Origin: Paucibacter sp. KBW04
GTDB lineage: Bacteria; Pseudomonadota; Gammaproteobacteria; Burkholderiales; Burkholderiaceae_C
Assembly: GCF_003852425.1 (NCBI RefSeq)
Contig: NZ_QAJN01000001.1
Coordinates: 124,001-188,000, forward strand
Direction of reading: 5' to 3'
DNA: 64,000 bases
Below, piece by piece: positions 20,293 through 59,685 of this stretch. Each line of letters begins with the position of its first letter. Position 1 is the stretch's first letter. A program made the translations under genes and the position numbers. Below the pieces are notes generated by a model that was given only the letters and a program-made list of their open reading frames with translations, was not told the DNA's origin and searched no databases.

Positions 20293-20340
20293 TGTAAAGC
20301 GCCAATTGGTTTGAGGCATCACGTCAGTTGAATTGAGGCA
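20293..20340. repeat. prophage left end with transposase-site-like repeats
   Basis: The end TGTAAAGCGCCAATTGGTTT matches the inverted right end TGTGAACCAGCACATGGTCT imperfectly (15 of 24 over the longer alignment). GCCAATTGGTTTGAGGC recurs in inverted form 126 bases inside the right end with two changes. About 25 bases further in, GTTGAATTGAGGCAGC repeats the same pattern. These are the expected places for MuA-like binding sites. Confidence 0.7.
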
Positions 20341-20357
20341 GCAAACCATCTGGCGGA

Positions 20358-21053
20358 TTAAATCTTGATGCAGTACAGCACAGCAACGTTGCGCGGCCGT
20401 GTTTCATTACCAACCACTCCAGCCGGATTGACCTGTCCATCGTAGTCACCGCCGTCATTCGTGTGACCCCAATAGTTGTCATCATCGGTCGAACTGGAGC
20501 CTTGGTGGTGCTGAGTGTTCGTCGCACCAAACGTACTGAAGCCGCCGTAACCATGCTCGCCCCACGGCATGATGTGCTTGTGCTGCTGGACTTGACCGAG
20601 TTGAGTTGAAGCCAGGGACCGGCCCGCATCCACCCCACGCCCGGCATCAACGCCACGCAAGAACTCGCCGCGCAGGTCAGGCAGCGCAAAGGTGTTCACG
20701 CCGTCACCAGCCCCCCAAGCACGCCCAATGGCGTTGAACAAGGCAGGATAGACGGCCTTGCTAACGACGGACCCATCACAAACCAGCCAGCCACTTGGGG
20801 CCGTTGCAGTACCAAAGGCTGAAATCAACCCTGCGGGGATCGACGCTGCAAGCAGGCTTTGAATCGCCTTCAAAAGCTGATCGTTAGACGGCTTACTCAG
20901 CCCAGTGCCAGTGGCTTCGATAACGTTGCAAATCTCATCTTGAACCGCATTCAAGAACGCGGCAGTAACCACTGTCGCAGGCGTTCCAACATTCGGGTCG
21001 CCTTCAGTGAAATGGCCGCCAGGTACTGCCGCTGGGCCGTCAATTCGATGCAT
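20358..21053 (-). CDS. phage tail-collar-domain fibre protein
   Basis: 231 residues. The central part PAGLISAFGTATAPSGWLVC followed by DGS...YPALFNAIGRAWGAGDGVNTF and LPDLRGEFLRG is the phage tail collar domain. The C-terminal part is His/Gly/Asn-rich and ends NVAVLYCIKI, the usual end of such short fibres. CGGAG stands seven bases before the ATG. It is the last gene of the leftward tail operon, 65 bases from the phage end. Confidence 0.88.
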   Translation of the reverse strand: MHRIDGPAAVPGGHFTEGDPNVGTPATVVTAAFLNAVQDEICNVIEATGTGLSKPSNDQLLKAIQSLLAASIPAGLISAFGTATAPSGWLVCDGSVVSKAVYPALFNAIGRAWGAGDGVNTFALPDLRGEFLRGVDAGRGVDAGRSLASTQLGQVQQHKHIMPWGEHGYGGFSTFGATNTQHHQGSSSTDDDNYWGHTNDGGDYDGQVNPAGVVGNETRPRNVAVLYCIKI

Positions 21054-21083
21054 GGTCAAACTCCGTTCAAAGGGCCTGCAAGT

Positions 21084-21707
21084 TCAGGCGTGATAGGCAA
21101 ACAAAACCCGCGTATGGGCTGGCTTATAGCGATTGAATTGGCACTCGATCACCTCGTTACTCCACACGCGCAAAGGTTCACCGGCAGCACCGGCTCCAGC
21201 CCGAAATGGAGTCACAGCAACAGTCGTCGGCACATTGACCCGCCAGATATGCGCCCACTCATCACCTGTGAACACAATGCCCGCAGCAGCTGCAGCTGCA
21301 GCTGACTTGAACTCGTCGATGGTGATGGTGTAGCCAAGCCTCGAAGCCAACTCAATGAAGAAGCGCCGAGACTGACCGCCCACCGCAGTCAATCGCCCCT
21401 CAAGCGCCAGGCGCCGCTCAGCAACAGTCTGAGAGGTAGTCACACAAGGATCGGGCAGCCCAACTACACGCTCCCAATCCGGCAGCATTTCTGCCGTACT
21501 GGCCGGATCAGTTTCAGCGAGCAGCAAAGCCGCGCGGGCGTCCAGCCGCTCAAACTCAGCGGCAAGTCCACCCAAGAACCGCATCAACACCGACTCGGCC
21601 TCGCGGGGCCACGCTAACCCACTTGGAAGAAGCGCAGCCAAGGCCTCCTGGAACTCGGCCTGCGAATGTCGCACCAGCCCAAATTGATCACGCAGTTGCT
21701 GCAGCAT
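21084..21707 (-). CDS. Mu gp48-like baseplate protein (DUF2313)
   Basis: 207 residues. The start FQEALAALLPSGLAWPREAE and the segments RLDARAALLLAETDPASTAE, MLPDWERVVGLPDPC and RLALEGRLTAVGGQSRRFFI are typical of the YmfQ/gp48 family, which closes the baseplate next to gp47. A GTG start 29 codons upstream is open, right after the preceding stop, but the extra residues do not look like the family. In Mu this gene directly follows gp47; here a fibre and its chaperone lie between. Confidence 0.85.
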   Translation of the reverse strand: MLQQLRDQFGLVRHSQAEFQEALAALLPSGLAWPREAESVLMRFLGGLAAEFERLDARAALLLAETDPASTAEMLPDWERVVGLPDPCVTTSQTVAERRLALEGRLTAVGGQSRRFFIELASRLGYTITIDEFKSAAAAAAAGIVFTGDEWAHIWRVNVPTTVAVTPFRAGAGAAGEPLRVWSNEVIECQFNRYKPAHTRVLFAYHA

Positions 21708-21799
21708 GTTTGTTTCCCAGATCAGGTATGCAGAGCCCCACATGAGCGGCAACCCGCTCTCGCTGGTGACATAAAGATAGTCATACTCGCGCACGATAT

Positions 21800-22183
21800 T
21801 CAGAAACTAGGAGCTGCCGGAAAGGCGACATGAGGGAACCCACTTTGCTGCGGAAGATCACGAAGGGCTTGCCTGTAATTAGCCCATGCACTTTTTTGAG
21901 CAGCAGTCAACGCGTTGTCAGGTAGTTGAGTCCAGTCCGATGCCGCAATTGCCGCACTCCGTTGAGCCCTCACTCGCAATGCCAATACCTCGTCTGAAAT
22001 CGGAGCCGAAGGCAATGCTTCAGGAGAAAAAAAGGCGCCTTCCGAGTACATCAAACCGTGCCTAATCTTGCCTTCGTACTCAACCACCTCCAGCCCATCC
22101 AAAGTCGCTGGCAACTCTTCGTCGCATGACTCAATGAACTGTTGAACAACGCCGTCCGGGCGCACAAGTGCATAGGTCTTCAT
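21800..22183 (-). CDS. tail fibre assembly chaperone-like protein
   Basis: 127 residues. The C-terminal part RAQRSAAIAASDWTQLPDNA ... SAWANYRQALRDLPQQ is the common phage tail-assembly chaperone domain, and the N-terminal MKTYALVRPDGVVQQFIES is a short beta region. ATGA overlap with the fibre gene upstream says it serves that fibre. Confidence 0.8.
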   Translation of the reverse strand: MKTYALVRPDGVVQQFIESCDEELPATLDGLEVVEYEGKIRHGLMYSEGAFFSPEALPSAPISDEVLALRVRAQRSAAIAASDWTQLPDNALTAAQKSAWANYRQALRDLPQQSGFPHVAFPAAPSF

Positions 22184-24414
22184 TTCTTCGTTCCGATCAC
22201 CAACATGGAAGTGCCACCGCGTTGATTTGCAAAGGCGGTGAATGAGCCACCATTGCCAGATCCCTGCACCGTCACGACAACGTTGAGCGGCCCACCTCCA
22301 GGCGAAGGCACATACCGACTAACACTGACGGGAATTTGCAAGTAGACCGAGGGCGCCGCTGTTGCGATAGCCTGCGCAACAACGGTGCCGTTCACCTTGA
22401 CCCGGATCGTGAAGTCGGAGCTGAACATCGAGTCGCCAACCGTCTGACATGCACAGTTGAAAAGCACGAAAAGAGGAGCCCCGCCGGTATCGATGTAACC
22501 CGCATTGAGCAAGGTGTACTCACCACTCGAACTAGGAATCACCCAGTCCGAGGAAAGTGATGCGCCAAGAGGCACTGTCACAGCGTTATTTGCAATATGG
22601 AAAGTGTTGACAGCAAGGTCACCAATTCGCGAGGCCGGAACAACCAGCGTAGCGACACCATTCACAGTCCCAAGAACCATCATGTTGACGGGTGGCGCAT
22701 CCGGCTGGCTGCTAGCCACGAACACAATCCGATCAGCCATCAGCAGGACTTCAGAGCTTCCACCGGATGAATCGTTAGGGGCAGTTGATGCAAGACCCAT
22801 TGCACCGAAGATTGACCGGCCGTCTGACCGCGTAGCGACAGTCTTCAGAACAAACTGAGAGGTCACGCCACCCGGCCCGGCTACGACTGTCGACAGCGCG
22901 GAAACCTGCCCGCTCAAAGTCCCTGTCGCGGCCACCGTGTTGCTGTAGTAGGTAGCCGCTGCTGAAGCAGAATTTGCAGCTTCACCAGCCTTGGTTGACG
23001 CAGTCGATGCATAGCCAGAAGCGGCCGTAGCACTACCTGCGGCAGCTGAAGATGAGGTCGCCGCCGCCCCAGCCGCAGTCGACGCAGAAGAAGCCGAACT
23101 AGAGGCGTTTGACGCGCTGGTCGCAGCATCATTGCGATAGCTGAGCGCCTCCCCAGCCTTTGTGGTTGCCGTGTTCGCAGAAGTACTCGCCGACGTGGCG
23201 GAGCTTGACGCCTCCCCAGCTTTCGTTGAAGCAACGCTTGCTGAACTCGCTGCGGCCGTCGCACTTCCTTGAGCAGCGCTAGCCGACGATGCAGCTAGAT
23301 CCGCCTTTGTCGTCGCAGTCGATGCTGAGCCACTCGCACTCGTAGCTGAAGTCGCAGCCTGTGAAGCCGAGGTGCTCGCATTGCTAGCGGCCGTCTCGGC
23401 TGACAGCTTGCTGCTGTTGGCCGCAGTGGCAGAGGTCGCGGCCGCAGTCGCAGACGTCGCAGCACTTGATTGCGAGGAAGCGGCAGCCGTTGCTGAGTTA
23501 CCCGCTGCAGTAGCGCTGTTCGCAGCCAAAGTCGCTTTGGTGGTTGCGGTTGATGCAGACCCACTCGCACTAGTCGCCGAGCTGGCCGCAGAGTCCGCTG
23601 AGAGCGATGCATTGGAGGCGGACGTCGAGGCGGCCAACTTGCTGCTGTTGGCTGCAGCCGCCGAGGTTCCCGCACTCGTCGCTGAACTCGCCGCGCTCGT
23701 CTCGGATGAGGATGCTGCGCTGGCCGAGTTCGCTGCTGACGTGGCGGCTGAAGTCGCAACGGTGGCCTTGTTGGTCGCCGTAGCAGCTGAGCCATTCGCA
23801 CTGGTTGCAGAAGTCGCAGCAGCATCAGCTGAAACCGTTGCGTTGCCCGCAGCGGTCGTCGCTGTCGTGGCGCTATTGGCAGCGGAAGTTTTGCTTTCAA
23901 GGGCCTCGCCAGCTCGAACAGAAGCTTCATTGGCAGCTTGAAGAGCTGCTGCCTGGCTGCTGGCCGCCGCCGCCTGAGCATTGGCCGCGTCGATAGCCGA
24001 CTGAGCTGCAGAGGTTGTCGTCCCAAAGACCTCTTGAAGATCCGAGACTTTCGTCACCAACCCAGTCGCCGGATCGTCAACCAAGGCAATGCGAGCAAGA
24101 AGTTCATTCGTCAGCACGCTCTCGCCCAAGAGCCCCTGCAGATCAAGCAGTAGGGCATTGACGTCAGCCCAGGGCTGGCCTTCCCCAATGCCGGTGATGA
24201 TGGATTTGATCCGCGCCCCAACAGTGCCTGCCGGATAGTTCATCAGCGGGTTGAACGCAACCGATCCTGCAGCCCGGTCAGGCCGCGCCCCATCCAGCAG
24301 GTCACTCAGGTAGGCAACCACGTCGCGCCGAACGCTTGCCGTCAGACGCTGCTGAACCGCATCTTCAACCAGCTGCAGCCCTTGCCCTTCGGTCAGTCGT
24401 CGAACAGCCGTCAT
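22180..24414 (-). CDS. long Ala/Ser-rich tail fibre protein with DUF1983-like region
   Basis: 744 residues. The N-terminal ~130 residues are probably the virion anchor. From about 135 to 490 the chain is almost only Ala, Ser and Thr with regular Lys/Asn, expected to form a long trimeric stalk. Then FVLKTVATRSDGRSIFGAMG and SSEVLLMADRIVFVASSQ resemble the DUF1983 region of lambda-J-like proteins. A beta-rich tip of about 180 residues ends the protein. The gene starts four bases after gp47 and overlaps the chaperone gene. It is probably the main host-recognition fibre. Confidence 0.85.
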   Translation of the reverse strand: MTAVRRLTEGQGLQLVEDAVQQRLTASVRRDVVAYLSDLLDGARPDRAAGSVAFNPLMNYPAGTVGARIKSIITGIGEGQPWADVNALLLDLQGLLGESVLTNELLARIALVDDPATGLVTKVSDLQEVFGTTTSAAQSAIDAANAQAAAASSQAAALQAANEASVRAGEALESKTSAANSATTATTAAGNATVSADAAATSATSANGSAATATNKATVATSAATSAANSASAASSSETSAASSATSAGTSAAAANSSKLAASTSASNASLSADSAASSATSASGSASTATTKATLAANSATAAGNSATAAASSQSSAATSATAAATSATAANSSKLSAETAASNASTSASQAATSATSASGSASTATTKADLAASSASAAQGSATAAASSASVASTKAGEASSSATSASTSANTATTKAGEALSYRNDAATSASNASSSASSASTAAGAAATSSSAAAGSATAASGYASTASTKAGEAANSASAAATYYSNTVAATGTLSGQVSALSTVVAGPGGVTSQFVLKTVATRSDGRSIFGAMGLASTAPNDSSGGSSEVLLMADRIVFVASSQPDAPPVNMMVLGTVNGVATLVVPASRIGDLAVNTFHIANNAVTVPLGASLSSDWVIPSSSGEYTLLNAGYIDTGGAPLFVLFNCACQTVGDSMFSSDFTIRVKVNGTVVAQAIATAAPSVYLQIPVSVSRYVPSPGGGPLNVVVTVQGSGNGGSFTAFANQRGGTSMLVIGTKK
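23119..23811 (-). repeat. three copies of a 77-residue (231-bp) repeat inside the fibre gene
   Basis: The motif SATSAxGSAxTATxKAxxA recurs with its Gly at residues 208, 285 and 362, exactly 77 residues apart. ANSSKL recurs at the same period within the units. Codons have drifted, so this is an old duplication of stalk units and not a slippage tract. Confidence 0.8.
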
Positions 24415-24418
24415 CGCA

Positions 24419-25471
24419 TCAGCTCCAGGTAATCACGCCAAGCACCGGCATTTGGCCCGCGCCATACACCACATCATTTGTAGGTGTCACCAACACATTG
24501 TTGGACTCACCCGCCGCCACGCTGATCGCCTCGCGTAAGTGGCTCAGTAAAATCGTTCCACCCGGCAAGGCCTCGCGCTGCAACACATCAGCCAGCTCTG
24601 CTGTTACAGCTGCGCGTACCGCCGCAGTGTTCGGCGTGAGCGTGATGGTCATATTCAGCGGCACGGCCACAGGCGCCTGCACACTCACTTGCGCGCACAC
24701 CGGCCGCAAGTCGTCAACGTAGGCCTGCACGGCATCCACCTCGCTCGCATCAGGGATCAACGACTCATCGCCGTCACGAACAAATCGGAGCACCACCGTG
24801 CCAGGCCCGTTCTCCAGCGGGTAGCACCAGGCACGCGTCACGCCGGGCACCTGCAAAGCCCAGGCCACATAGTCAGACTTGCTACCGCCCATCGGCGGCT
24901 GCTGGATGCGTTGCAAGATGCGTTGGCGCAGGGCTTCGTCCTGCTCCCGATCAGCGCCTTGAACCAGTCCACCAGCAGCCACGACACCCGCGCTGGCTAC
25001 ACCGCCTACGGGCTGCACAAACCCCATCTGCGTGCCCGCATCGCCGTTCCCATCCGCACCGGCCACCACGGCCGCGACTGGAATCAACGCCACACCGCCC
25101 ACAACAGTCACGTCGGCAGTGCTGGCGTACTGTGCCCCATCGCTACGCTGCAAAACAACGCCAGAAGGCACTACAACGCCGCTGGTTCCTGTAATCGATA
25201 CTGTCCCGGTAGCAAAGCTAGCAGGCACCCGAAAAACGCCCCAGATGCCCGCATAGCGATCCAAGAACACAGTCTCAGCGGTATCCACCATCAACTGGGC
25301 AGCCAGCCAGTCCAAATAGCCATACACGCCGTGAAGCGCGCCCGCATGCATCCGGCTTAGCACCGCCAGGTTGCTGCGCCGCAGTCGGGCGTCAGTGCCC
25401 GGCAAAGCCGCCTCAATATCCGCTGATGCGCGCGCGATCAAGTCGGGCAGTGTTGGTCGTGCAAATGGCAT
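24419..25471 (-). CDS. baseplate J / Mu gp47-like protein
   Basis: 350 residues. Typical gp47/gpJ features: PTLPDLIARASADIEAALPG at the start, HGVYGYLDWLAAQLMVDTAE followed by FLDRYAGIWGV, and the central QDEALRQRILQRIQQPPMGG. It forms the baseplate wedge in contractile tails. It abuts gp46. Confidence 0.92.
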   Translation of the reverse strand: MPFARPTLPDLIARASADIEAALPGTDARLRRSNLAVLSRMHAGALHGVYGYLDWLAAQLMVDTAETVFLDRYAGIWGVFRVPASFATGTVSITGTSGVVVPSGVVLQRSDGAQYASTADVTVVGGVALIPVAAVVAGADGNGDAGTQMGFVQPVGGVASAGVVAAGGLVQGADREQDEALRQRILQRIQQPPMGGSKSDYVAWALQVPGVTRAWCYPLENGPGTVVLRFVRDGDESLIPDASEVDAVQAYVDDLRPVCAQVSVQAPVAVPLNMTITLTPNTAAVRAAVTAELADVLQREALPGGTILLSHLREAISVAAGESNNVLVTPTNDVVYGAGQMPVLGVITWS

Positions 25472-25909
25472 TTATTGCCCCTTCCAAAACGATTCAAAAC
25501 GAAATTGCACAACGGGCTTGGTACTCCGTTTGATGCTGATCGACAGACCCAGAACCACAGTTCCCAGCAGCTCAGCGCTCACATCGACGTCTGAAGCGAT
25601 ACCGTCATCAACCAACCACTGCAAGGCTTCACGCGCATACAGCTCGGCCCGGCCCAAAACTGACGGCAAGCGTTTCTCGCGCGCCAGCTCCCACAGCCGG
25701 GAGCCGATCTTGTCGCCCTCCACCTCGGGGTAAGCGTCACCCCACCAGCCGCGCCAGCTAGTCTGCGCGGTCTCACCGGCAGCAGCCACGCGATCAGTAA
25801 ACAAGCTCAGCACCACAGCGGTCTGCAGCCCATCGTCGTCAGCCAGCGATGGCCCTGAGACCTGCCACTCGCCGCCAAAGTCGCGCCAGGCTGTTCGGAT
25901 ATCACTCAT
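25472..25909 (-). CDS. Mu gp46-like baseplate wedge protein
   Basis: 145 residues. GLQTAVVLSLFTDRVAAAGE followed by RGWWGDAYPEVEGDKIGSRL is the GP46-family hallmark (gpW/gp25-like wedge). The ATG is preceded by the end of the gp45 gene, one base apart. Confidence 0.9.
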   Translation of the reverse strand: MSDIRTAWRDFGGEWQVSGPSLADDDGLQTAVVLSLFTDRVAAAGETAQTSWRGWWGDAYPEVEGDKIGSRLWELAREKRLPSVLGRAELYAREALQWLVDDGIASDVDVSAELLGTVVLGLSISIKRSTKPVVQFRFESFWKGQ

Positions 25910-25910
25910 C

Positions 25911-26492
25911 TCACATGCTCCGATCCGGCCCAGGGCCTGTGCCGTGCTTGTGCGGGTTGAACGCGTCGCGCATGCCGCGCATAGTCTTGGTACCGCCTTG
26001 GTCGCGCACATCGTCCTCGGCGGTGATCGTGGCGCCCGAATCAATATTGCCGTCGACCAGCAGCTTTCCATGCACGGTCATGTCGCCGCTGCACTCCACC
26101 AGCGGCGAGCTGACGTAGACCCGCGTGGCGGCCACCACCTCAATCGTGCCCCCGCGTTTGATGTGGACCTTGTCGCCCTCGTCGGTGTAGATCGCAACCT
26201 CACCTGATGCCAAGCCCTTGAGTCGATAGCGCCGGTCGTCCACCGCGATCACCAGCGCATGGTCTCGATTGCCTGCCACTGCCACCGCAACCGCCTCGGC
26301 GCCCGGCAAAGGCACCGAGGTGAAGCCATAGTTCTGAAACCGCTCCACCTGGTCGCGCAGCTCATCAGCCAAAAGCATGATCTGCACTGACTGCAGCTTG
26401 GTGGAGTCATCCACCAGCTGCAAGACAGCGCGGCCCACCATCAGCTGGATGCGCTGAGTCAATGGCCGCAGCATGCGTTGAAAAGCCTGCAT
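25911..26492 (-). CDS. baseplate spike protein (Mu gp45 / P2 gpV-like)
   Basis: 193 residues. An N-terminal OB-fold-like region carries NYGFTSVPLPGAEAVAVAVA, then come the triplex beta-helix strands GGTIEVVAATRVYVSSPLVE and a C-terminal NPHKHG. The HxH pair near the tip is the iron-binding feature of such spikes. Start and previous stop share TGATG, so translation is coupled to gp44. Confidence 0.9.
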   Translation of the reverse strand: MQAFQRMLRPLTQRIQLMVGRAVLQLVDDSTKLQSVQIMLLADELRDQVERFQNYGFTSVPLPGAEAVAVAVAGNRDHALVIAVDDRRYRLKGLASGEVAIYTDEGDKVHIKRGGTIEVVAATRVYVSSPLVECSGDMTVHGKLLVDGNIDSGATITAEDDVRDQGGTKTMRGMRDAFNPHKHGTGPGPDRSM

Positions 26493-27568
26493 CACTTTGC
26501 TCCCTTGGGTGGGAGCGACCAATAACCAGCGCCCAAGTCGTTGTTCTTGATGGGCAGCACCTTGAATGCATCGGCACGGGTCAACCCCATCTTTGTTGTT
26601 GTGCCACCTTCGTCCGAAAGCGAGTACTCGACGCTTGAGATCAACAAGTCATCCGCCAGATGCAAGGCCTGCGCGTCGACATGCACCAGGCGATTTGGCA
26701 TCCAAAGCCCATCAGCATGCCGCCAACCCTGCACCGTCACCTCAACGGCGAGCGACCTTGCCATCCGCACATTGGCCTCCCAACTGGCTCGCTGAGCCAG
26801 CGTCGCTGCAATGTCGGGGCTATCGGCCGTGATGATCAACGGCCGATATCGACCCACCCCAGGGTCTTTCGCCCGAGCGAAAACATGGGCAGCTGCAGCC
26901 GCATTGAAGAAGTCGCTGCCAGGCGCCTGACCCTTCAGCAGGTATTCGCTATGCCGATCCCGCATGTCAACCTTCACGCTGGCCTTCAGCAAATTGCTAC
27001 CAAGCACAAGCGGGGTCGCAATGCGCTCAGTTCCGGCCCGCGTGATCACCAAGCCTCCCCGACCGTCTGTGACAAGCAGAAGGCCACGAATGCGCGCAGC
27101 ACGGACCATCGCATCAAACACCGTCTCGCCCTCTTGCAGAGCAAAAGAGGTCAGCGGCTTGCCCGTATCCACCTGGGCCGAAACCGACACGCCAAAGGGC
27201 TTGGCCAGCTCGGTCGCAATTTGTTCGATATGCAAGCCGCGCCATTGGCCCGCCTTACGAATCGCACTGCAGTCCACCAGGTCGGCAGTCTTGTCTCGGC
27301 CAGTCAGCTCAACGGCGTGTTCTTCATCACCGATGGTCATCTCGACTTGGTCGACATAACCCGTGATCACCGTCTCACCATCGATCTGCAGCTCGCAACT
27401 CTGGCCGGCCCGGACCTCTTGAACCGGCTCCAGAACATTCCAGCGCTCCGACACACCCAGCCTAAAACTACCTGCGCATTGCTCCATGCTTCGCTGCACG
27501 CTAATGCTCTTCCAGCCCGCATAAGCTCGCGCGCCCACCAGCAGCTCCAGACCCGCACTCTTACTCAT
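26492..27568 (-). CDS. baseplate hub protein (Mu gp44 / P2 gpD-like)
   Basis: 358 residues. It opens LELLVGARAYAGWKSISVQR and continues with QIDGETVITGYVDQVEMTIG and ELTGRDKTADLVDCSAIR, the hub pattern of Mu gp44. It sits between gp43 and the spike, in the Mu order. It overlaps the end of gp43 by eight bases. Confidence 0.92.
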   Translation of the reverse strand: MSKSAGLELLVGARAYAGWKSISVQRSMEQCAGSFRLGVSERWNVLEPVQEVRAGQSCELQIDGETVITGYVDQVEMTIGDEEHAVELTGRDKTADLVDCSAIRKAGQWRGLHIEQIATELAKPFGVSVSAQVDTGKPLTSFALQEGETVFDAMVRAARIRGLLLVTDGRGGLVITRAGTERIATPLVLGSNLLKASVKVDMRDRHSEYLLKGQAPGSDFFNAAAAAHVFARAKDPGVGRYRPLIITADSPDIAATLAQRASWEANVRMARSLAVEVTVQGWRHADGLWMPNRLVHVDAQALHLADDLLISSVEYSLSDEGGTTTKMGLTRADAFKVLPIKNNDLGAGYWSLPPKGAK

Positions 27569-30256: not shown

Positions 30257-30306
30257 GGGGTCTTGCCTCGCTTGGAGTAAAAAGCGCGCCCAGTCAGCGC
30301 GCTAGC

Positions 30307-31102: not shown

Positions 31103-31103
31103 C

Positions 31104-31289: not shown

Positions 31290-31333
31290 GTCTTGTCCCT
31301 TCGCATCGGTTAGAAAGCCGAAGCCAAATTGAG

Positions 31334-32794: not shown

Positions 32795-32796
32795 GA

Positions 32797-33009: not shown

Positions 33010-33020
33010 AGTCACTTTCT

Positions 33021-34075: not shown

Positions 34076-34090
34076 GGCTTTCGATCCAGA

Positions 34091-36241: not shown

Positions 36242-36274
36242 GTCGGTTACTCCGATTTAGTTGGGGCCGATGGA

Positions 36275-37228: not shown

Positions 37229-37269
37229 GTCTTTGAATCCTGTTTGGGTTGAGGTTTAGGCGCCGGTGC

Positions 37270-37626: not shown

Positions 37627-37651
37627 TGCGTGGGTTCCTAGAGTTGCGGCG

Positions 37652-49655: not shown

Positions 49656-49673
49656 TTTTCGCACAAGCGAAAA
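49656..49673. promoter_or_regulatory. dyad TTTTCGC-ACAA-GCGAAAA ahead of the lysis/packaging block
   Basis: A perfect 7-bp inverted repeat with a 4-base spacer right after the terminator and 25 bases before the first late start. The same TTCGC-N4-GCGAA core lies ahead of the leftward capsid block. Candidate binding site for the Mor-like activator or the repressor. Confidence 0.55.
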
Positions 49674-52036: not shown

Positions 52037-52091
52037 TTGATTCGCCCAAATCCCATGCCTTGCCGACGCCCCTCAACCAATAAGGACTGAC

Positions 52092-52559
52092 ATGAACGAC
52101 CAAGCCATTGAACAAGAAATTCAGACCAAGGGCCTGACCGCGCCCCGCGTCACAAAGGAACATATCGACTTCATGATGGGGCGAGTTACCTATGTCGGAG
52201 GCCGTGTGGAGCAGACCACCAGCACCGTCGTGCATGCATTCTTGGACGGTAACTTCCTGCTGGCTAGCGGGCAAAGCGCGTGCGTGAGCCCCGAGAACTT
52301 CAATGCCGAACTGGGCTTCAAGATGGCGCAGGCCCAGGCCGAGGCGAAGGCCCGGGATCAGCTTTGGCTGCTGGAAGGGTATGCCCTGCGCACCCGGCTG
52401 GCTGGCCCTACGCAGGAGCAGGTCAGCCGCTTCCTGACCTGGCCTGTTCCGGCGCATGTCCACCCGGACGGTGCGTCTGGCCAGCCAGGCCGCACGGGCA
52501 CCAACCTGCTGGATGCGCCTACCGCTCAGGCGATGCTGCAGCACGTCCTGCACGGCTGA
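52092..52559 (+). CDS. N4 gp49/Sf6 gp66 family protein
   Basis: 155 residues. TKEHIDFMMGRVTYVGGRVE, NFLLASGQSACVSPENFNAE and LGFKMAQAQAEAKARDQLWL plus LEGYALRTRL follow the N4-gp49/Sf6-gp66 pattern closely. Function unknown. It is inserted between the two terminase genes, a place where Mu has nothing. Confidence 0.8.
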   Translation: MNDQAIEQEIQTKGLTAPRVTKEHIDFMMGRVTYVGGRVEQTTSTVVHAFLDGNFLLASGQSACVSPENFNAELGFKMAQAQAEAKARDQLWLLEGYALRTRLAGPTQEQVSRFLTWPVPAHVHPDGASGQPGRTGTNLLDAPTAQAMLQHVLHG

Positions 52560-52579
52560 TTTCCGAGCCCCTGCTGGTG

Positions 52580-54136
52580 ATGATCGAACTTGCCCCAAAA
52601 ATTCCAAACACAGCGGGCCTGAATGTGCCCGCTGTTTTGCTGCCCTATCAGCAGCGGTGGATTGCCGATCAAAGCGCCTTCAAGGTCGCTGAAAAGAGCC
52701 GCCGCACGGGCCTGACCTGGGCCGAGGCTGCCGACGATATTTTGACGGCGAGCAGCTCGCGTGAAGCGGGCGGCCAAAACGTGTACTACATCGCCTACAA
52801 CCAGGACATGACGATTGAGTACATCCAGGCCTGCGCGATGTGGGCCAAGGCCTTCAATCGGGCGGCGGGTGAGATTGAAGAAGGCTTTTGGGAAGAAGCC
52901 GACGAAGACAAGAACATTAAGACCTACACGATCCGTTTCCCGGGAAGTGGGTTTCGCGTCGTCGCGCTGAGCAGCAGGCCCAGCAATTTACGCGGTCGCC
53001 AGGGCATCATCGTGATTGACGAAGCGGCCTTCCATGATCAGCTGGACGAGTTGCTGAAGGCAGCGATGGCCATGCTGATTTGGGGCGGCAAGGTGCGGGT
53101 GATCAGCACGCACAACGGGGTGGAGAACGCGTTCAACACGCTCAAGACGGATATCGCGGCAGGCACGCGCAGCGGCACGGTGCACCACATCCCCTTCCGC
53201 CAGGCCGTGGCTGAGGGCTTGTATGAGCGGGTGTGCCTGCGGCTGAGCAAGCCTTGGGTGGAGGCCGAGCAGACAGCCTGGGTGGACTCGGTCTATAGCT
53301 TTTACGGCGCGGGGGCGGAAGAAGAGCTGGATTGCGTGCCTGCCAATAGCGGCGGCACCTGGTTGAGCCGGGCCTTGATTGAGGCGCGCATGGTAGACGG
53401 CCAGGTGCTGCGCTGGAAATGCCCCAAGGGATTTGAAACGCTGCCTGATCATATCCGCTGGGCAGACTGCCAAGACTGGATCATTGCGCAATTGGCGCCT
53501 GAGCTGGCGCGGCTAGACCCATCGCTGGAGAGCGGCATGGGTGAAGACTTTGGTCGAACTGGTGACCTGACTGTGCTGAGCCCCTGGCAATTGACTCAGC
53601 AGCTGAAGCGTAGGTTCCCTTTCATGGTAGAGCTGCGTAACGCACCCTTCAAGCAGCAAGAGCAGGTAGTTTTCTATCTGCTGGACCGCCTGCCGCGCTT
53701 CCGCAAAGCAGCCTTTGATGCGCGCGGCAATGGTCAGTACTTGGCCGAGGTAGCGATGCAGCGTTACGGCACCCAGCGCATTGAACAGGTGATGCTGAGC
53801 GAGAGCTGGTACCGCGAGAACACGGCCCCCTTCAAAGCCGCGTTTGAAGACGCCACGATTGAGCTGCCCCGCGATGCCGAGGTGTTAAGCGACCTGCGTG
53901 CGTTTGAGGTGGTCAAGGGTGTACCGCGCATTCCTGACAAGCGCAGTACCGATGCTGAGGGTGAGAAGCGTCACGGTGATGCGGGCGTTAGCTTGCTGCT
54001 AGCCCACTACGCAAGCCGAGCGGACTTCGCGCCCATCGAGTACGAGTCGCTTGGCGTTGAACGTGTGTCATCCGGCCTAGACGGCTGGAGCGGTGACACC
54101 TGGCATGGCCTCAACACCGGCCGCATGGGGTACTGA
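52580..54136 (+). CDS. large terminase subunit (Mu gp28)
   Basis: 518 residues from the ATG at MIELAPKIPN. The ATPase part has EKSRRTGLTWAEA (Walker A variant) and IIVIDEAAFHD (Walker B DE), with GGKVRVISTHNG as the coupling motif. The C-terminal RNase-H-like nuclease has acidic residues in GMGEDFGRTGDLTV and KAAFDARGNGQYLAE. It pumps DNA into the prohead by a headful mechanism. The longer reading frame upstream is a shadow of the gp49-like gene. Confidence 0.93.
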   Translation: MIELAPKIPNTAGLNVPAVLLPYQQRWIADQSAFKVAEKSRRTGLTWAEAADDILTASSSREAGGQNVYYIAYNQDMTIEYIQACAMWAKAFNRAAGEIEEGFWEEADEDKNIKTYTIRFPGSGFRVVALSSRPSNLRGRQGIIVIDEAAFHDQLDELLKAAMAMLIWGGKVRVISTHNGVENAFNTLKTDIAAGTRSGTVHHIPFRQAVAEGLYERVCLRLSKPWVEAEQTAWVDSVYSFYGAGAEEELDCVPANSGGTWLSRALIEARMVDGQVLRWKCPKGFETLPDHIRWADCQDWIIAQLAPELARLDPSLESGMGEDFGRTGDLTVLSPWQLTQQLKRRFPFMVELRNAPFKQQEQVVFYLLDRLPRFRKAAFDARGNGQYLAEVAMQRYGTQRIEQVMLSESWYRENTAPFKAAFEDATIELPRDAEVLSDLRAFEVVKGVPRIPDKRSTDAEGEKRHGDAGVSLLLAHYASRADFAPIEYESLGVERVSSGLDGWSGDTWHGLNTGRMGY

Positions 54137-54138
54137 CA

Positions 54139-55776
54139 ATGATTTTGGATAAAGACGGCGAACCGATGACGCAAGAGATTGCGAGCATCACACGCGACCC
54201 GCACCGCGTCTTCTTTGGTGGCGTGCAGTTCAACGAAGACGACACGATCAAGGCGCGTGGCGGCTCCAAAGGCCTGAAGATTTATCAGGAGCTGAAGCGT
54301 GATGCGCACGCGGGGGCTGTGCTCGCCAAGCGCAAGCTGGCCGTGACCAGTCGCACTTGGGTAGTGAACGCAGCGAGTGAGAAGCCAGCCGATAAGGCGG
54401 CGGCCGAGCTGGTGACCAAGGCACTGCAACACCTCAAGTTCAACAACATTTGCAAGCGCCTGCTGGAAGCAAACCTGAATGGCTTTCAACCCAGCGAGAT
54501 TTTGTGGGAGGTACGTGACGGCCTGGTATTGCCCAAGACGATCAAGGCGCGCGACCCACGCCGCTTCACCTTCGGCCTGCAGGATGAGCTGCGCCTGCTG
54601 ACCCGAGAGAACCTGCTGCAAGGCGAGGTGATGCCTGCACGCAAGTTCATCGTGCATCGCAGGGGTGCCGACGATGACAGCCCCTTTGGCGCAGGGCTGG
54701 GCTCCATGCTGTATTGGCCCGTGTTCTTCAAGCGCAATGGCATCACGTTCTGGCTGACCTTCGCCGATAAATTCGGTGCCCCAACAGCCCTGGGCAAGTA
54801 TCCGGCTGGCGCGCAGAAGGATGAGCAGAAGAAGCTGCTGGGGGCTCTTGCTGCGATCAGCCGGGATGCGGGCGTGATCATTCCCGAAGGGATGGCGATT
54901 GAACTGATTGAAGCCTCGCGCAGTGGCTCGGTGGATACCTATGAAAAGCTGGTCCGCTATATGGACGAGCAGATCAGCAAGGCCGTGCTGGGCGAGACGA
55001 TGAGTACCACGGCCGCGAGCGCGGGCTTGGGCTCTAACCAAGCCAACGTGCAGAACGATGTGCGGCTTGAAGTGGCGATGGATGACGCCAATGAGCTGGA
55101 CGAGACGCTGAACGACACCTTGGTTCGTTGGATCGTTGAATACAACATGCCGGGCGCTGGCCTGCCCAAGTTGGAGCATGTGTTTGATGAGCCCGAAGAC
55201 ACGGCCAAGCTGGCCGAGCGGGATTCAAAGCTATTTCAAATGGGCTTTGAGCCCAGCGAGCAGTACATCACCGAGACCTATGGCGAGGGATGGACGCGCA
55301 AGGCACCGCCATCTGTGTTAACTGCGCCTGTTCAGACCCAGGGTTACGCCGTTGACGCAGCGTTGGAAGCGGGCGCGGAAGACGAAGACACCAGGGGCGC
55401 CCGAGCCGATGACCCGGCAACCGCAGGTTTCGCTGAAGGATTGCCGCTTGGCAAGGCCTCCGCTCAACGGGCATTCAACCAGGCCCGGCAGGAAGCGATC
55501 CAAAGCGGTGCCGAGGAGCTGGCGGCCCAGTGGCAAGCGCTGATGCGAAAGCCGATGGAGGACTTGGTGAACCTGCTGGATGAAACGGGCGACCTGGTGC
55601 AGTTCCGTGAGCGACTCACTGGCCTGCTGCATGCCAAGCCTGATCCGGCCACGGTGGAGACGATTGCGCGGGCAACGTTTGCCGGGCATGTGATGGGGCG
55701 AGGGTTGGCGAAGCCGGTGGCAAAGAAGCCGGGCTTGATGGCCCGAGCCGTGAAAAAGCTGCTTGGAGACCAATAA
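54139..55776 (+). CDS. portal protein (Mu gp29, DUF935)
   Basis: 545 residues. It begins DKDGEPMTQEIASITRDPHR; the body has KRKLAVTSRTWVVNAASEKP, FKRNGITFWLTFADKFGAPT and KAVLGETMSTTAASAGLGSN, the DUF935 pattern. It forms the dodecameric DNA gate at the capsid vertex. It starts three bases after the terminase stop. Confidence 0.93.
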   Translation: MILDKDGEPMTQEIASITRDPHRVFFGGVQFNEDDTIKARGGSKGLKIYQELKRDAHAGAVLAKRKLAVTSRTWVVNAASEKPADKAAAELVTKALQHLKFNNICKRLLEANLNGFQPSEILWEVRDGLVLPKTIKARDPRRFTFGLQDELRLLTRENLLQGEVMPARKFIVHRRGADDDSPFGAGLGSMLYWPVFFKRNGITFWLTFADKFGAPTALGKYPAGAQKDEQKKLLGALAAISRDAGVIIPEGMAIELIEASRSGSVDTYEKLVRYMDEQISKAVLGETMSTTAASAGLGSNQANVQNDVRLEVAMDDANELDETLNDTLVRWIVEYNMPGAGLPKLEHVFDEPEDTAKLAERDSKLFQMGFEPSEQYITETYGEGWTRKAPPSVLTAPVQTQGYAVDAALEAGAEDEDTRGARADDPATAGFAEGLPLGKASAQRAFNQARQEAIQSGAEELAAQWQALMRKPMEDLVNLLDETGDLVQFRERLTGLLHAKPDPATVETIARATFAGHVMGRGLAKPVAKKPGLMARAVKKLLGDQ

Positions 55777-55778
55777 GC

Positions 55779-55964
55779 ATGAGCTATCGAGAAACCGACG
55801 AAGAGTGTCCAGGATGTGGAGCCAGTTCGGCTGACCGAAAGGGTAACAAGCCAGACGCTCCCCAAGGCCTGAGCGAGTGTCCTTGGTGTGGCGTTGAAAA
55901 GTGCTGCATGTGCGACATGGGCGATGACGTGGAGTGCGGGTCTTGCGACCTGGACGACGCATAG
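55779..55964 (+). CDS. 61-residue zinc-ribbon-like protein
   Basis: Nine Cys in 61 residues: CPGCG, CPWC, CCMCDMG and CGSC clusters suggest one or two zinc ribbons. It sits two bases after the portal gene. No Mu counterpart; role unknown. Confidence 0.65.
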   Translation: MSYRETDEECPGCGASSADRKGNKPDAPQGLSECPWCGVEKCCMCDMGDDVECGSCDLDDA

Positions 55965-55995
55965 CGCCGAACGACTTGAACAAAGGATCCTCTTG

Positions 55996-56286
55996 ATGCT
56001 ATTCCGAATGAAACCAATCACCGTTGAGGCTGTACGCATCGCAGATGCGATGCAGCACTCACGAGTTAGTTGGAGCAAGCTGCCCGGCTGGGTGCGTAAA
56101 GCCTATGAGGCGGGCAAGATTATTTTTGCGTCCAATGCCATCTCTATCGCGACGCCGCAAGGTCGCCTGGTGGGCCTGCGAAACGATTGGCTGATTCGGG
56201 GTATTGAAGGCGAGCTGTACCCTTGCAGCGCCGAAGTGTTCGCTCAAACATATGAGCCGGTCGAAGCCGAGGCCAGCGAGGTTTGA
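55996..56286 (+). CDS. small phage protein of the 'GELYPC' type
   Basis: 96 residues. FRMKPITVEAVRIADAMQHS, ending WLIRGIEGELYPCSAEVFAQ and TYEPVE, is a frequent small phage protein (PGDYG-like). Role unknown. It is inserted between portal and gp30, where Mu has none. Confidence 0.7.
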   Translation: MLFRMKPITVEAVRIADAMQHSRVSWSKLPGWVRKAYEAGKIIFASNAISIATPQGRLVGLRNDWLIRGIEGELYPCSAEVFAQTYEPVEAEASEV

Positions 56287-56289
56287 CGC

Positions 56290-57069
56290 ATGAGTGCCGA
56301 GCTGCGCTTTGACCTGGACCCGAAGAAGGCGATCGCCTTCTTTCGTGGCAAGGGTTACAGCACCTCGTTTGCCTGGCAGGAAATCTGGCAGTACGAGCAC
56401 GACGCCGCCTTCACGGTCGCCAAGATGATGAACGTCGACTTGCTACGCGATGTGCGAGCAGCGGTAGACAAGGCATTGGCCGAGGGCCAGACGTTTCATC
56501 AGTTCAAAGACGCTTTACAGCCCCGCATGCTGGAGGCCGGATGGTGGGGCCGAGCTGAGATGCCCGACCCGGCAACGGGTGAACTTAAAGAAGTGGAGCT
56601 GGGCAGCCCGCGCCGCCTGCGCACGATCTTTGAGACCAACATTCAAACCAGTTATGCGGCAGGTCAGTGGGCAGAGATTCAGCAGACAAAGGCAGATGCG
56701 CCCTACCTGATGTATGACGCCGTTCATGACGCACACACACGGCCAGAGCATGCGGCCTGGGACGGCACGGTGTTGCCTGCGGATGACCCGTGGTGGGAGA
56801 CGCACTACCCACCGAACGACTGGGGTTGCCGTTGCGGTGTGATCCAGCTGAGCGGCGATCAGGTCAAAGCGTTGGGCAAAGAGGTGGCTGACAAGGCCCC
56901 GCCGATGAAGATGCGTGAGTACACGAATCCGGCCACTGGTGAAGTGAGCCAGGTGCCACAAGGCATTGGCCCAGGTTGGGGTTATGCGCCCGGCTCAAGT
57001 CGAACGGATCTGGACCGCGACCGCGAGCTGCTGGTGCAGAAAGAAAAGGCCTTCCGCGATGGCAAGTAG
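56290..57069 (+). CDS. head morphogenesis protein (Mu gp30/F-like)
   Basis: 259 residues. SPRRLRTIFETNIQTSYAAG, AVHDAHTRPEHAAWDGTVLP and WWETHYPPNDWGCRCGVIQL are the hallmarks of the Mu F / SPP1 gp7 family. A minor head protein needed in prohead assembly. Confidence 0.92.
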   Translation: MSAELRFDLDPKKAIAFFRGKGYSTSFAWQEIWQYEHDAAFTVAKMMNVDLLRDVRAAVDKALAEGQTFHQFKDALQPRMLEAGWWGRAEMPDPATGELKEVELGSPRRLRTIFETNIQTSYAAGQWAEIQQTKADAPYLMYDAVHDAHTRPEHAAWDGTVLPADDPWWETHYPPNDWGCRCGVIQLSGDQVKALGKEVADKAPPMKMREYTNPATGEVSQVPQGIGPGWGYAPGSSRTDLDRDRELLVQKEKAFRDGK

Positions 57070-57658
57070 CGATGGCGTGAAGGTGGTCGACTCCGGCGTG
57101 CAGGCGGCGCTTGAAAAGCTGCGTCTGGGCCTGCCCTTGGGTGGGCGAATGAAGCCCACGTTTGAAGCAATGGGGCGTGTTCTGAAGACGGGTGCCCAGC
57201 TGCGGTTTCGGACTGCGACCGGGCCGGACGGAAAGGCCTGGGAGAAGAGCTGGCGGGCGAAGAACGAAGGTGGGCAAACGCTGAGTTTGACCAGGCGTCT
57301 TCGCAACTCGCTGGCCTATCAAGCGACCGAGAGCAGCGTGGCCGTTGGAACGAATGTGATCTATGCCGCGATCCACCAATTTGGTGGCGTGATTCGGGCC
57401 AAGGCTGGACCGTTCTTGTCGATCCCGGTGACGCCTGCGGCGCGGGCTGCTGGGAGCCCGCGAAACATGACAGGCCTGCACGTCGTTCAGTCGCTCAAAG
57501 GTCAGTTCATGTTGGTGGATGACAAGGGTGTAACGCAGTACCTGCTCAAGAAGCAGGTGACGATTCCGGCACGGCCATTTTTGGGCGTGTCGGATGGCGA
57601 TCAGAAAGAGCTACTCAGCATCGCTGAGAAGCACTTGCAAGCAACCTGGAAAAGATAA
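57059..57658 (+). CDS. virion morphogenesis protein (Mu gpG-like)
   Basis: 199 residues. GRVLKTGAQLRFRTATGPDG, WEKSWRAKNEGGQTLSLTRR followed by LRNSLAY, NVIYAAIHQFGGVI and TIPARPFLGVSDGDQKEL fit the phage virion morphogenesis (gpG) family. Overlaps the preceding gene by 11 bases. Confidence 0.9.
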   Translation: MASSDGVKVVDSGVQAALEKLRLGLPLGGRMKPTFEAMGRVLKTGAQLRFRTATGPDGKAWEKSWRAKNEGGQTLSLTRRLRNSLAYQATESSVAVGTNVIYAAIHQFGGVIRAKAGPFLSIPVTPAARAAGSPRNMTGLHVVQSLKGQFMLVDDKGVTQYLLKKQVTIPARPFLGVSDGDQKELLSIAEKHLQATWKR

Positions 57659-58290
57659 TGCCTGACGTTGTTATTTCTGCTGAAAAGCTGCTGAAGTTTG
57701 CGCCTCGAATTCGGAATCCTTCGCTGCACGCGCAGGCACTGGAATCGGCACGGCTGGCAAGTTCGGTGACGACACCCAGGCGGCTGTGGCACTTGATGGG
57801 CCAAGTGTTTGTGGAGACAGCTGGCTTTACATCCTTTGAAGAAGACCTCAACTACAAGACACCGCAGCGCCTGCTGGAAATGTTCCGTGCTGTGCGTGAT
57901 TTGAAGGATGCCGAGGCTCTGATCGCGCGCGGGCCTGAGGCGATTGCTAACCGGGTCTATGCCAACCGCCTGGGCAACGGCCCGGAGGACAGCGGTGATG
58001 GTTGGTGGTATCGCGGATCAGGCTATCTGCAGCTGACCGGCCAGGACAATTTCTGGGCGATTGGTTTGGCCGTTGGTATGCCACTGGTGGAGAAGCCTGA
58101 TCTGGCGCGCGATCCTCCAACGGCTGCTGTAGTCGCGCTTAGGTTTTGGGACAGCAAACGGTGTTCGGCATTGGCTGACCGAGATGACTCGGCTGGGATC
58201 ACACGCTTGATCAATGGTCCCAAGATGGTGGGCGCCAAGGAACGCCGGGCAGCAACGCTGCGGGCGATGGAGGTGTGGCTAACCCAATAA
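57658..58290 (+). CDS. GH19-type endolysin
   Basis: 210 residues of the glycoside hydrolase 19 (class I chitinase-like) fold: LWHLMGQVFVETAGFTSFEE holds the catalytic Glu (Glu53), DLNYKTPQRLLEMF follows, and ANRVYANRLGNG with WWYRGSGYLQLTGQDNF is the substrate groove. It cleaves the glycan strands of peptidoglycan. In Mu the lysozyme gene is next to the start of the late region; here it closes the packaging block, far from the holin. No signal peptide. Confidence 0.9.
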   Translation: MPDVVISAEKLLKFAPRIRNPSLHAQALESARLASSVTTPRRLWHLMGQVFVETAGFTSFEEDLNYKTPQRLLEMFRAVRDLKDAEALIARGPEAIANRVYANRLGNGPEDSGDGWWYRGSGYLQLTGQDNFWAIGLAVGMPLVEKPDLARDPPTAAVVALRFWDSKRCSALADRDDSAGITRLINGPKMVGAKERRAATLRAMEVWLTQ

Positions 58291-58298
58291 AAAAACAG

Positions 58299-58338
58299 GG
58301 CGACTTGCAAGGATGCGCTAACACCCTTGCAAGCCGCC
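58299..58338. repeat. inverted repeat between endolysin and methylase genes
   Basis: GGCGACTTGCAAGG and CCTTGCAAGCCGCC pair over 13 positions with one bulge-like mismatch. No T run on either side, so it is more likely an mRNA structure or protein site than a terminator. Confidence 0.5.
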
Positions 58339-58423
58339 AATCCGCTGATTGCGCAGCGAACCAACCAAGGCCCTGCTACCTCCCGGGAGGCGGGGCGAGT
58401 CTAACCGGATTGAGTTCGTGCAA

Positions 58424-59197
58424 ATGGCAAACCCAGTAATTCCTTGGATTGGTGGCAAGCGCCGCCTGGCAGACAAGATCCTGCCGCTGCTCGGTCAGGC
58501 CGAGCACAGTTGCTACGTTGAGCCCTTCTGTGGCGCAGCAGCTTTGTTCTTTATGAGAGAGCACCGCGTGAAGGTCGAGGTGCTCAATGACATCAATGGC
58601 GATCTGGTGAACTTGTATCGCGTGGTTCAGCACCACTTGGACGAGTTTGTGAGGCAGTTCAAATGGGCGTTGTCGAGCCGCCAGCTCTACGAGTGGGCGC
58701 AGATGACGAACCCCGAGACGCTGACCGATATCCAAAGGGCCGCACGGTTCTTCTACCTACAGAAGCTTGGCTTCGGTGGCAAGGTGCAGGGCCGAACGTT
58801 TGGCACGGCGACCACAACACCGGCCAGGCTGAACTTGCTGCGGATCGAGGAGGATCTGAGTGAGGTGCATCTGAGGCTTAACGGTGTCTTTGTGGAACAC
58901 CGAGCCTGGGACAAATGCGTGGTGCAGTACGACCGGCCGCACACATTCTTCTTCATGGATCCGCCTTACTTCGGCACCGAAGGTTATGGCGTGGAATTTG
59001 GCTTGGAGCAGTACGACCGAATGGCCGAGCTGATGCGCACGATGAAGGGCCGGGCTGTGGTGACCGTCAACGACGTGCCGGAGATGCGGGCGGCATTCAA
59101 GGGTTTTGTGATGCAGAGGGTGGGGATCACCTACTCGGTCGGCCAGGCCGCCAAGCGCAAGCCAACCGGGGAACTCATCATTCAGAACTGGCGCTGA
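58424..59197 (+). CDS. DNA adenine methylase (D12 class)
   Basis: 257 residues. PWIGGKRRLADKILPLLG and YVEPFCGAAALFF give the S-adenosylmethionine site, and FFMDPPYFGTEGY (residues 179-182 DPPY) the catalytic motif of N6-adenine methyltransferases. It lies at the right end, where Mu carries mom, and probably protects phage DNA from restriction or marks it. The motif methylated cannot be read from the sequence; whether it is GATC is unknown. Confidence 0.88.
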   Translation: MANPVIPWIGGKRRLADKILPLLGQAEHSCYVEPFCGAAALFFMREHRVKVEVLNDINGDLVNLYRVVQHHLDEFVRQFKWALSSRQLYEWAQMTNPETLTDIQRAARFFYLQKLGFGGKVQGRTFGTATTTPARLNLLRIEEDLSEVHLRLNGVFVEHRAWDKCVVQYDRPHTFFFMDPPYFGTEGYGVEFGLEQYDRMAELMRTMKGRAVVTVNDVPEMRAAFKGFVMQRVGITYSVGQAAKRKPTGELIIQNWR

Positions 59198-59307
59198 TCG
59201 GCGGGAAATTCGCCCCGTGGCGCGTCGAAAGCGGGGGGTAGCACCTCCTGCCTTGCCAGGGTGAAAAAATTGCCCTGGTGGGCGTTCTAAGAGGTCGCCC
59301 TTGGCAC

Positions 59308-59354
59308 CTGAACCGTTGCGACGCGCCACAGTTGGCGCAACGGTTCAGTTTTTT
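59308..59354 (+). terminator. terminator at the end of the rightward phage transcript
   Basis: CTGAACCGTTGCG and CGCAACGGTTCAG form a perfect 13-bp stem, followed by six T. It keeps phage transcription from running into the host gene fragment. Confidence 0.93.
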
Positions 59355-59404
59355 GCTGGTTTGGCCTCTTCATGGGCAGCCATACGCCTTGGGCATCTAA
59401 AACA

Positions 59405-59685
59405 GCAACACTTCGTCGCAACACTTCAGCGGCAACTGTCCTGAGGTGACAAACTCGCTGCAAATCGCCATTCATGGCGATTCGTTGGGGCTTTGGGGCT
59501 GGTTTGAACCTCGCAACAGTTACCGCATCGGTGCCGAAGTGTTGCGTCAGACCAATTGGCGGCGAAGTGTTGCGCTTTACTTCACCTCTAATCCTGCTAA
59601 GTCCCTGATTCTTTTGGCCTTCCCGGGCCTTCCCACCTTTTCCCGGCCCTTCCCATATCCCCCCTAGACCATGTGCTGGTTCACA
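59405..59685. repeat. prophage right end with transposase-site-like repeats
   Basis: Four copies of CGAAGTGTTGCG or close relatives: two as GCAACACTTC(G) at 59405-59415 and 59418-59428, two as CGAAGTGTTGCG at 59534-59546 and 59562-59574 (28 bases apart). Between the last two lies the inverted copy of the left-end 17-mer (59544-59560). The last 100 bases are a pyrimidine-rich tract with repeated CCTTCCC and CCGGGCC, ending TTCACA. No gene is present in this 490-base stretch beyond the methylase. Confidence 0.7.

What the first reader, a model, noticed from the sequence alone, without database searches (positions are those of the whole stretch)
20293..59685. Module order differs from Mu: head-tail block inverted and moved to the left of the immunity switch
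In Mu the order from one end is c, ner, A, B ... lysis, 27-30, G, I, T, tail. Here everything from I to the tail fibres runs leftward on one side, and ner-like, A, B ... 27-30, G runs rightward on the other. The break falls exactly between G and I. As a result the transposase gene and the operator region, which in Mu doubles as a transposition enhancer near one end, lie about 20 kb from both ends. Either the enhancer is not used or it works at long range. The packaging start must also be somewhere new.
Basis: partly seen in the sequence, partly recalled or inferred. Interest (0 to 1): 0.72.

Follow-up and report, generated by a model that had tools for sequence, protein, structure and literature searches.

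The report
Mu-like prophage with one half flipped
This is a Mu-type transposable virus lodged in the chromosome of a bacterium related to Rubrivivax, in which the half that carries the control, transposition and packaging genes is reversed compared with phage Mu; related viruses share the layout, so it is a stable genome type and not a sequencing error.

Summary
The gene order is real. A 39,393-bp prophage (20293-59685) has TG...CA ends and a 5-bp duplication (GTAGG). I-to-fibres run left, ner-A-B...27-28-29-30-G run right, and the G|I junction is broken. Four phages whose ends I hold (window, Rubrivivax pictus, Pelomonas aquatica, one metagenome contig) share the order, each with its own 5-bp duplication, so misassembly is excluded; the P. 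aquatica copy has lost B to endolysin.

Two similar sites exactly 22 bp apart mark the tail end in all four phages and in Mu, RcapMu, B3 and KS10 (8 of 10 genomes tested; not D3112 or MuM16-1), and the other end in 0 of 10. So the tail block still sits beside an attR-type end, and one inversion of the attL half [c...G] explains the order. KS10 is the same flip of B3 order.

The pivot G|I is where Mu carries its central gyrase site; a gyrase pivot is attractive but no such site was shown. In the four closest phages a shared dyad (TTCGC-N4-GCGAA) precedes both late operons. The immunity operator lies within 140 bp of mid-genome, so an operator-linked enhancer would act over about 19.5 kb. New variant of a known kind.

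The parts
20288..20292 (.). target duplication, left copy GTAGG
20293..59685 (.). whole prophage, 39,393 bp, TG...CA ends
   Evidence: same end sequences in three relatives
20302..20353 (.). attR-type end: transposase-site candidates 20302 (+), 20324 (+, 22 bp on), 20339 (inverted)
   Evidence: same spacing in R. pictus, G059, P. aquatica
20358..38836 (-). late arm 1: fibres/collar, gp48, J, gp46, gp44/P, N, tape, tube, sheath, gp37, gp36, major head protein, cement, protease I (37652-38836)
   Evidence: Pfam/PHROG
38837..39288 (.). I-rep gap, the pivot; the place that corresponds to Mu's G|I gap with its gyrase cut site; holds extra ORFs in relatives
   Evidence: no gyrase site shown
38872..38885 (.). 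late dyad copy 1, TTCGC-N4-GCGAA, 36 bp upstream of the I ORF
39289..39870 (-). repressor gene, same direction as I
   Evidence: PHROG transcriptional repressor
39850..39889 (+). operator-like array TTC(G/A)CT, spacing 10-14-10, at mid-genome (it overlaps the 5' end of the annotated repressor ORF, whose start is uncertain)
   Evidence: same spacing in R. pictus, G059/L059, L060
39910..40104 (+). ner-like HTH ORF (64 aa)
   Evidence: weak HTH hits below Pfam cut-off
40101..42449 (+). transposase A with PF02316, rve and Mu-transpos_C matches
42496..43221 (+). transposition ATPase B
46655..47104 (+). GemA
   Evidence: PF06252
48554..48973 (+). Mor-family late activator
   Evidence: PF08765, phrog_532
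49658..49671 (.). late dyad copy 2, before the right-arm late genes
51512..57658 (+). late arm 2: gp27, terL, portal, ORF 55888, F, G
57658..59197 (+). endolysin and D12-class adenine methyltransferase
59405..59573 (.). four exact GCAACACTTC copies (59405+, 59418+, 59536-, 59564-), function unknown; candidate packaging or end-linked control sites
   Evidence: also only near this end, as exact copies, in R. pictus (5), P. aquatica (3) and G059 (1)
59545..59676 (-). attL-type end: sites 59662 and 59545, 117 bp apart
59686..59690 (.). target duplication, right copy GTAGG

Best explanation
A Mu-type transposable myophage whose attL half, the whole block c-ner-A-B-...-lysis/terminase-portal-F-G, is inverted relative to Mu between a point just inside attL and the G|I junction. 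The tail block kept its place beside an attR-type end. As a result the repressor lies next to I and points the same way, the immunity switch sits at mid-genome, early genes are read from the centre towards attL, and the late genes form two diverging operons. Inferred working: it replicates by MuA/MuB transposition from ends that keep attL and attR site layouts; packaging would start at the attL-type end (59685); a shared dyad in front of both late operons, most likely a Mor-family site, would coordinate the two halves of the capsid gene set. Shown: order, ends, duplications, end layouts, dyads, kinship. Inferred: the inversion itself, the packaging end, what binds the dyad.
For: Exact ends and 5-bp duplications in 4 of 4 phages with ends held. 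Tail-end sites 10 dir, 32-33 dir, 47-48 inv in all four, as Mu attR 6 dir, 28 dir, 56 inv; other end 10 and 127 (138 in P. aquatica), plus 160 in R. pictus, against Mu 6, 111 (weak), 151. The 22-bp repeat at the tail end is the top lag (of 15-40) in 8 of 10 genomes, including Mu and RcapMu (Mu order), B3 and KS10; at the other end in 0 of 10. RcapMu's own record marks attR1/attR2 22 bp apart and one attL1. A single inversion also predicts the repressor next to I and in the same direction, as found. KS10's order equals B3's order with the same attL..G flip (G apart). Dyad at both late operons in window, R. pictus, G059 and L060; in the window 3 exact copies against 0.16 expected, 0 of 100 shuffles with 3.
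Against: D3112 and MuM16-1 lack the 22-bp repeat at the tail end, so the signature is not universal. The Mu site consensus I used is recalled, and L2 of Mu matches it weakly (8 mismatches of 22). No phage was found that is nearly identical to the window except for the flip, so the event itself is not seen. The third window dyad (26868) lies inside the tail arm. The dyad is absent as an exact copy at I in P. aquatica, L062, L065, L067, L074 and L121, so it holds only for the nearest relatives. Mosaic assembly of two halves would give the same map.
Confidence: 0.8

Rival explanations
1. One reading: the I-to-fibre block was inverted and moved to the left of the immunity switch, leaving the right half as it was.
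For: Gives the same gene map seen from the Mu order.
Against: It needs a cut and reinsertion instead of one inversion, and it would leave attL beside the fibres; the fibre end has the attR-type layout in 4 of 4 phages.
Confidence: 0.08
2. Mosaic assembly: two half-genomes from different phages were joined at the I flank in opposite directions, with no inversion of one ancestor.
For: Phage modules are mosaic; the MuA tree needs 3 changes of the order label and the I tree 6 (2 forced in each), so halves may have been exchanged.
Against: Within the main group both arms diverge together (for example R. pictus MuA 70-71%, I 66%, sheath 80%, portal 70%, terL 77%), and both arms keep full Mu-type gene content with no duplication or loss at the join.
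Confidence: 0.12
3. The break recurs at G|I only because that is an operon boundary with its own late promoter, not because of a gyrase site.
For: A dyad lies right before I in the nearest phages, and three of four have a terminator-like hairpin just before it on the I strand (none in the window). The gap sequence away from I is not conserved.
Against: Does not explain why the I flank stays near mid-genome.
Confidence: 0.5
4. The dyads are operators of the immunity repressor and silence both late operons in the lysogen, rather than Mor-type activator sites.
For: The half-site TTCGC also makes up the operator array (TTCGCT) in window, R. pictus, G059/L059 and L060; P. aquatica, with another repressor region, lacks the exact dyad at I.
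Against: L151 has the dyad upstream of I but no such array in the 11.3 kb held and no repressor hit.
Confidence: 0.3
5. Assembly error or chimera.
For: None found.
Against: Same order in independently sequenced genomes with different insertion sites.
Confidence: 0.01

Closest known systems
Phage Mu (NC_000929)
   Same: Gene set of both arms, TG...CA ends, 5-bp duplication, site layout at both ends, I at about half-genome
   Different: c-to-G half runs the other way relative to the ends; the switch is central, not beside attL; the transposase catalytic domain matches rve, not PF02914
Burkholderia phage KS10 (NC_011216; PMC2628397, passages and section 14 read)
   Same: Capsid genes split at F|I, with F-portal-terminase at the end opposite the tails and read towards that end
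   Different: In KS10 repressor-ner-A-B-Mor keep the direction of the tail block and lie next to I through Mor; its G is in the tail arm; no PF02316 match in its transposase
Pseudomonas phage B3 (NC_006548) and B3-like two-arm order; PhiKM (Bcepmuvirus, partial record)
   Same: Two diverging arms with a regulatory gene between; 22-bp repeat at the tail end of B3
   Different: Only c-to-Mor is inverted; terminase-to-tail stay together in one arm
Leptospira transposable prophages, group TG1 (PMC8705779, passages and section 14 read)
   Same: Two arms; TerS-TerL-portal block apart from the other structural genes
   Different: Exact order of TG1 is in a figure I could not see; it may or may not equal the order here

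Membership tests
Mu-like transposable phages (proposed Saltoviridae) | DDE transposase A and ATPase B | tested here: met
Mu-like transposable phages (proposed Saltoviridae) | TG...CA ends with 5-bp target duplication | tested here: met
Mu-like transposable phages (proposed Saltoviridae) | GemA and Mor/C | tested here: met
Mu-like transposable phages (proposed Saltoviridae) | Replication by transposition; host DNA packaged at both ends | not testable with these tools
   needs induction and sequencing of packaged DNA
Mu gene order | repressor-A-B...G-I-tail in one run from attL | tested here: not met
KS10 gene order | terminase-to-F inverted, A-B-Mor in line with I-tail | tested here: not met
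B3 gene order | only c-to-Mor inverted, terminase-to-tail in one arm | tested here: not met
Leptospira TG1 order | TerS-TerL-portal apart from the rest | tested here: inconclusive
   text of section 14 only; no TG1 genome examined
Central strong gyrase site | gyrase cleavage at mid-genome | not testable with these tools
   only position and lack of conserved sequence in the gap
Mu enhancer use | Enhancer-binding N-terminal domain in A (PF02316) | tested here: met
   31.1 bits against cut-off 23.3, profile positions 2-60 of 134; use of an enhancer itself not testable

The most novel reading that the evidence does not exclude
Transposable phage genomes are rearranged by half-genome flips that pivot on the central gyrase-site position next to I: Mu order flipped gives this lineage, B3 order flipped gives KS10. 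The tail half stays fixed to attR, the pivot stays near mid-genome because end synapsis needs a central gyrase site, and the pivot doubles as the landing place for extra genes (anti-CRISPR in D3112, reverse transcriptase in MuM16-1, a superinfection-exclusion-like gene in P. aquatica). In this lineage the transposition enhancer has either been given up, works from the apex of the supercoiled loop, or has been replaced by sites near the attL-type end.
Probability: 0.33. Interest if true: 0.75.

Novelty: new variant of a known kind. Interest (0 to 1): 0.58.

Why it matters
It supplies an order that makes sense of KS10, whose authors wrote that it is unknown why its genome is arranged that way, and it turns the scattered two-arm orders into a small set of flips on the attL side. 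It also gives natural test cases for two open questions: whether phages other than Mu depend on a central gyrase site (PMC8705779 says this is not clear), and whether a Mu-type enhancer must lie near an end.

Tried and rejected
Assembly error: rejected. PF02914 search of the own genome: no match, but the controls rang in 0, and the transposase matches rve instead, so it says nothing.

Tail block moved (reader): disfavoured by the end layouts.

Number of origins: unsettled. The MuA tree (44 rows: 12 divergent, 32 standard; rows with less than 5 kb upstream, short or low-scoring ORFs, and the duplicates L063, L013, L004, L003 left out) needs 3 changes, 2 forced by starred branches. The I tree (59 rows, quick method, long KS10 branch) needs 6 for the divergent label, 2 forced. 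HS6 and L074 were left out of the I search alignment as too distant (16% and 21%).

Of the 7, one is the window's own contig, one R. pictus, one has the same I as G059; L158 and L179 I no longer count, as no Portal_Mu was found in their records, and L158 is a near sister of a standard-order row, so it may be a B3-type prophage that lost its terminase block.

Mid-genome position is not tight: in 18 standard-order IMG/VR contigs picked by hand for near-complete length the I start lies at 0.355-0.544 of the length from the tail end (median 0.468); L159 0.403, L158 0.64 (contig ends not exact).

Gyrase site by sequence: no conserved block in the I-rep gap beyond the stretch next to I. Repressor versus A domain kinship: no significant match. 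Link between dyad and immunity type: inconclusive. Sequence-wide repeat search gave the first hint of the end repeats, the rest was background. No structure prediction was run.

Print search: the flip as such was looked for in five searches of the open-access library; nearest are KS10 and the Leptospira paper. Subscription papers, among them those on B3 and BcepMu, were not seen. Papers: PMC2628397 and PMC8705779 passages and section 14; PMC10052514, PMC5977238 and PMC3820752 passages only; other titles in listings only.
Full report
What is there. The element runs from 20293 to 59685 (39,393 bp). It starts TGTAAAGCGCC, ends GGTTCACA, is flanked by GTAGG, and interrupts a TonB-type receptor gene. 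Left-arm genes, from the centre outwards, are protease I, cement, major head protein, a GDSL hydrolase, gp36, gp37, sheath, tube, tape measure, N, P, gp45, gp46, J, fibre, gp48 and collar, all on -. Right-arm genes are a ner-like ORF, A, B, GemA, Mor, gp27, terL, portal, F, G, endolysin and methyltransferase, all on +. The repressor lies between, on -, the same direction as I.

Not an artefact. Rubrivivax pictus, in the window's family, has the same order with 65-80% identity in most shared genes and its own duplication, CGTCC. A metagenome contig (G059) has it with CCAAC, and Pelomonas aquatica with GCTTG, although that copy is deleted from inside B to inside the endolysin. G061, G062 and G063 show the same split without exact ends: F lies at the end opposite the tails in all three, and in G063 G follows F. 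Of 118 MuA-anchored loci, 51 had more than 3 kb upstream of A and 12 of these show I upstream on the other strand; in the other 39 no I was found in the 3-10 kb held. In the MuA tree ten of the 12 divergent rows form one supported clade, with L121 and L074 outside.

What moved. In Mu the attR end, beside the tail genes, has two transposase sites in direct orientation 22 bp apart and a third inverted; the attL end has spaced direct sites. The fibre end of all four phages here has sites at 10 direct, 32-33 direct and 47-48 inverted, and the other end at 10 and 127 (138 in P. aquatica). RcapMu's record annotates attR1 and attR2 22 bp apart. So the tail block has stayed with attR. One inversion of [c...G], from inside attL to the I flank, turns Mu order into this order and also puts the repressor next to I in the same direction, as seen.

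Relation to other orders. Write E for c-to-Mor and T for lysis-to-G. From attL, Mu is E T, B3 is -E T, this lineage is -T -E and KS10 is -T E. Flipping the whole E T block turns Mu into this order and B3 into KS10 (with KS10's G gone elsewhere). The KS10 paper calls the divided capsid module unique to KS10 and its reason unknown; the Leptospira paper describes two arms and a separate TerS-TerL-portal block in TG1.

Why there. Mu's record marks a gyrase cut site at 17879-17880, between G and I, and the literature says the central place of that site matters for end synapsis and replication (passages). The I start lies at 0.471, 0.461 and 0.472 of the length from the tail end in window, R. pictus and G059, 0.508 in Mu, 0.519 in KS10 and 0.483 in B3. 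A whole-half flip about that point keeps it central. This fits a gyrase pivot, and PMC8705779 reports Pato's view that the D3112 anti-CRISPR genes sit where such a site would be; D3112 has AcrF2 and MuM16-1 a reverse transcriptase in that gap, and P. aquatica a superinfection-exclusion-like gene in its I-repressor gap. Against it: IMG/VR contigs scatter from 0.355 to 0.64, P. aquatica is now at 0.761 through its deletion, and the gap sequence is not conserved. I rate it as possible, not shown.

How it may be run. The dyad TTCGC-N4-GCGAA stands 28-36 bp before the I ORF and again before the first right-arm late genes in window, R. pictus, G059 and L060; the window holds 3 exact copies against 0.16 expected, the third inside a tail gene region. 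It is missing as an exact copy at I in the more distant members and in P. aquatica. I favour a Mor-family activator site; a repressor site is possible because the operator array is made of TTCGCT units. In three of four phages a terminator-like hairpin precedes I, which would shield the late operon from repressor transcription; the window shows none.

Enhancer and packaging. A carries a match to PF02316, the family that Mu A and Mu c share, above the cut-off; B3 and KS10 transposases do not. The operator array is at mid-genome, so an operator-linked enhancer would act from the far point of the loop. At the attL-type end four exact GCAACACTTC copies (five in R. pictus, three in P. aquatica, one in G059) have no exact copies elsewhere in the stretches scanned. 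They are candidates for packaging or end-linked control, untested.

Verdict. A stable, previously unlisted order, as far as my five literature searches reach, in a known kind of phage.

Noticed in passing
L021/L148 (P. aquatica contig 48421-75045): Prophage of the same order with B and the endolysin cut short and everything between them gone, leaving both ends, I-tail arm, A and the methyltransferase.
   Followed up: partly
window 34091-35857: GDSL-type hydrolase gene between the major head protein and gp36; relatives have about 3-4 kb of other sequence in that slot, so it looks like a cargo place.
   Followed up: no
window about 59610-59670: TTCCC tracts at about 10-bp spacing between the two outer sites of the attL-type end, kept in all four phages (top lag 20, alignment); could be a bending region.
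   Followed up: no
L021 8108-8584 (-): Superinfection-exclusion-like gene (phrog_8545) in the I-repressor gap; R. pictus and L067 have unmatched ORFs there.
   Followed up: partly
L159, L170, L185, L226: IMG/VR loci with Mor or GemA directly upstream of I as in KS10; in L159 the portal lies on the opposite strand to I, so the KS10 order is not unique.
   Followed up: partly
L020 (Candidatus Muproteobacteria MAG): Tail genes upstream of A on the other strand but in an unusual order with two Mor-like hits.
   Followed up: no
window 22976-23820: Four 68-nt repeats (68-72% alike to the reference copy) inside the fibre gene.
   Followed up: no
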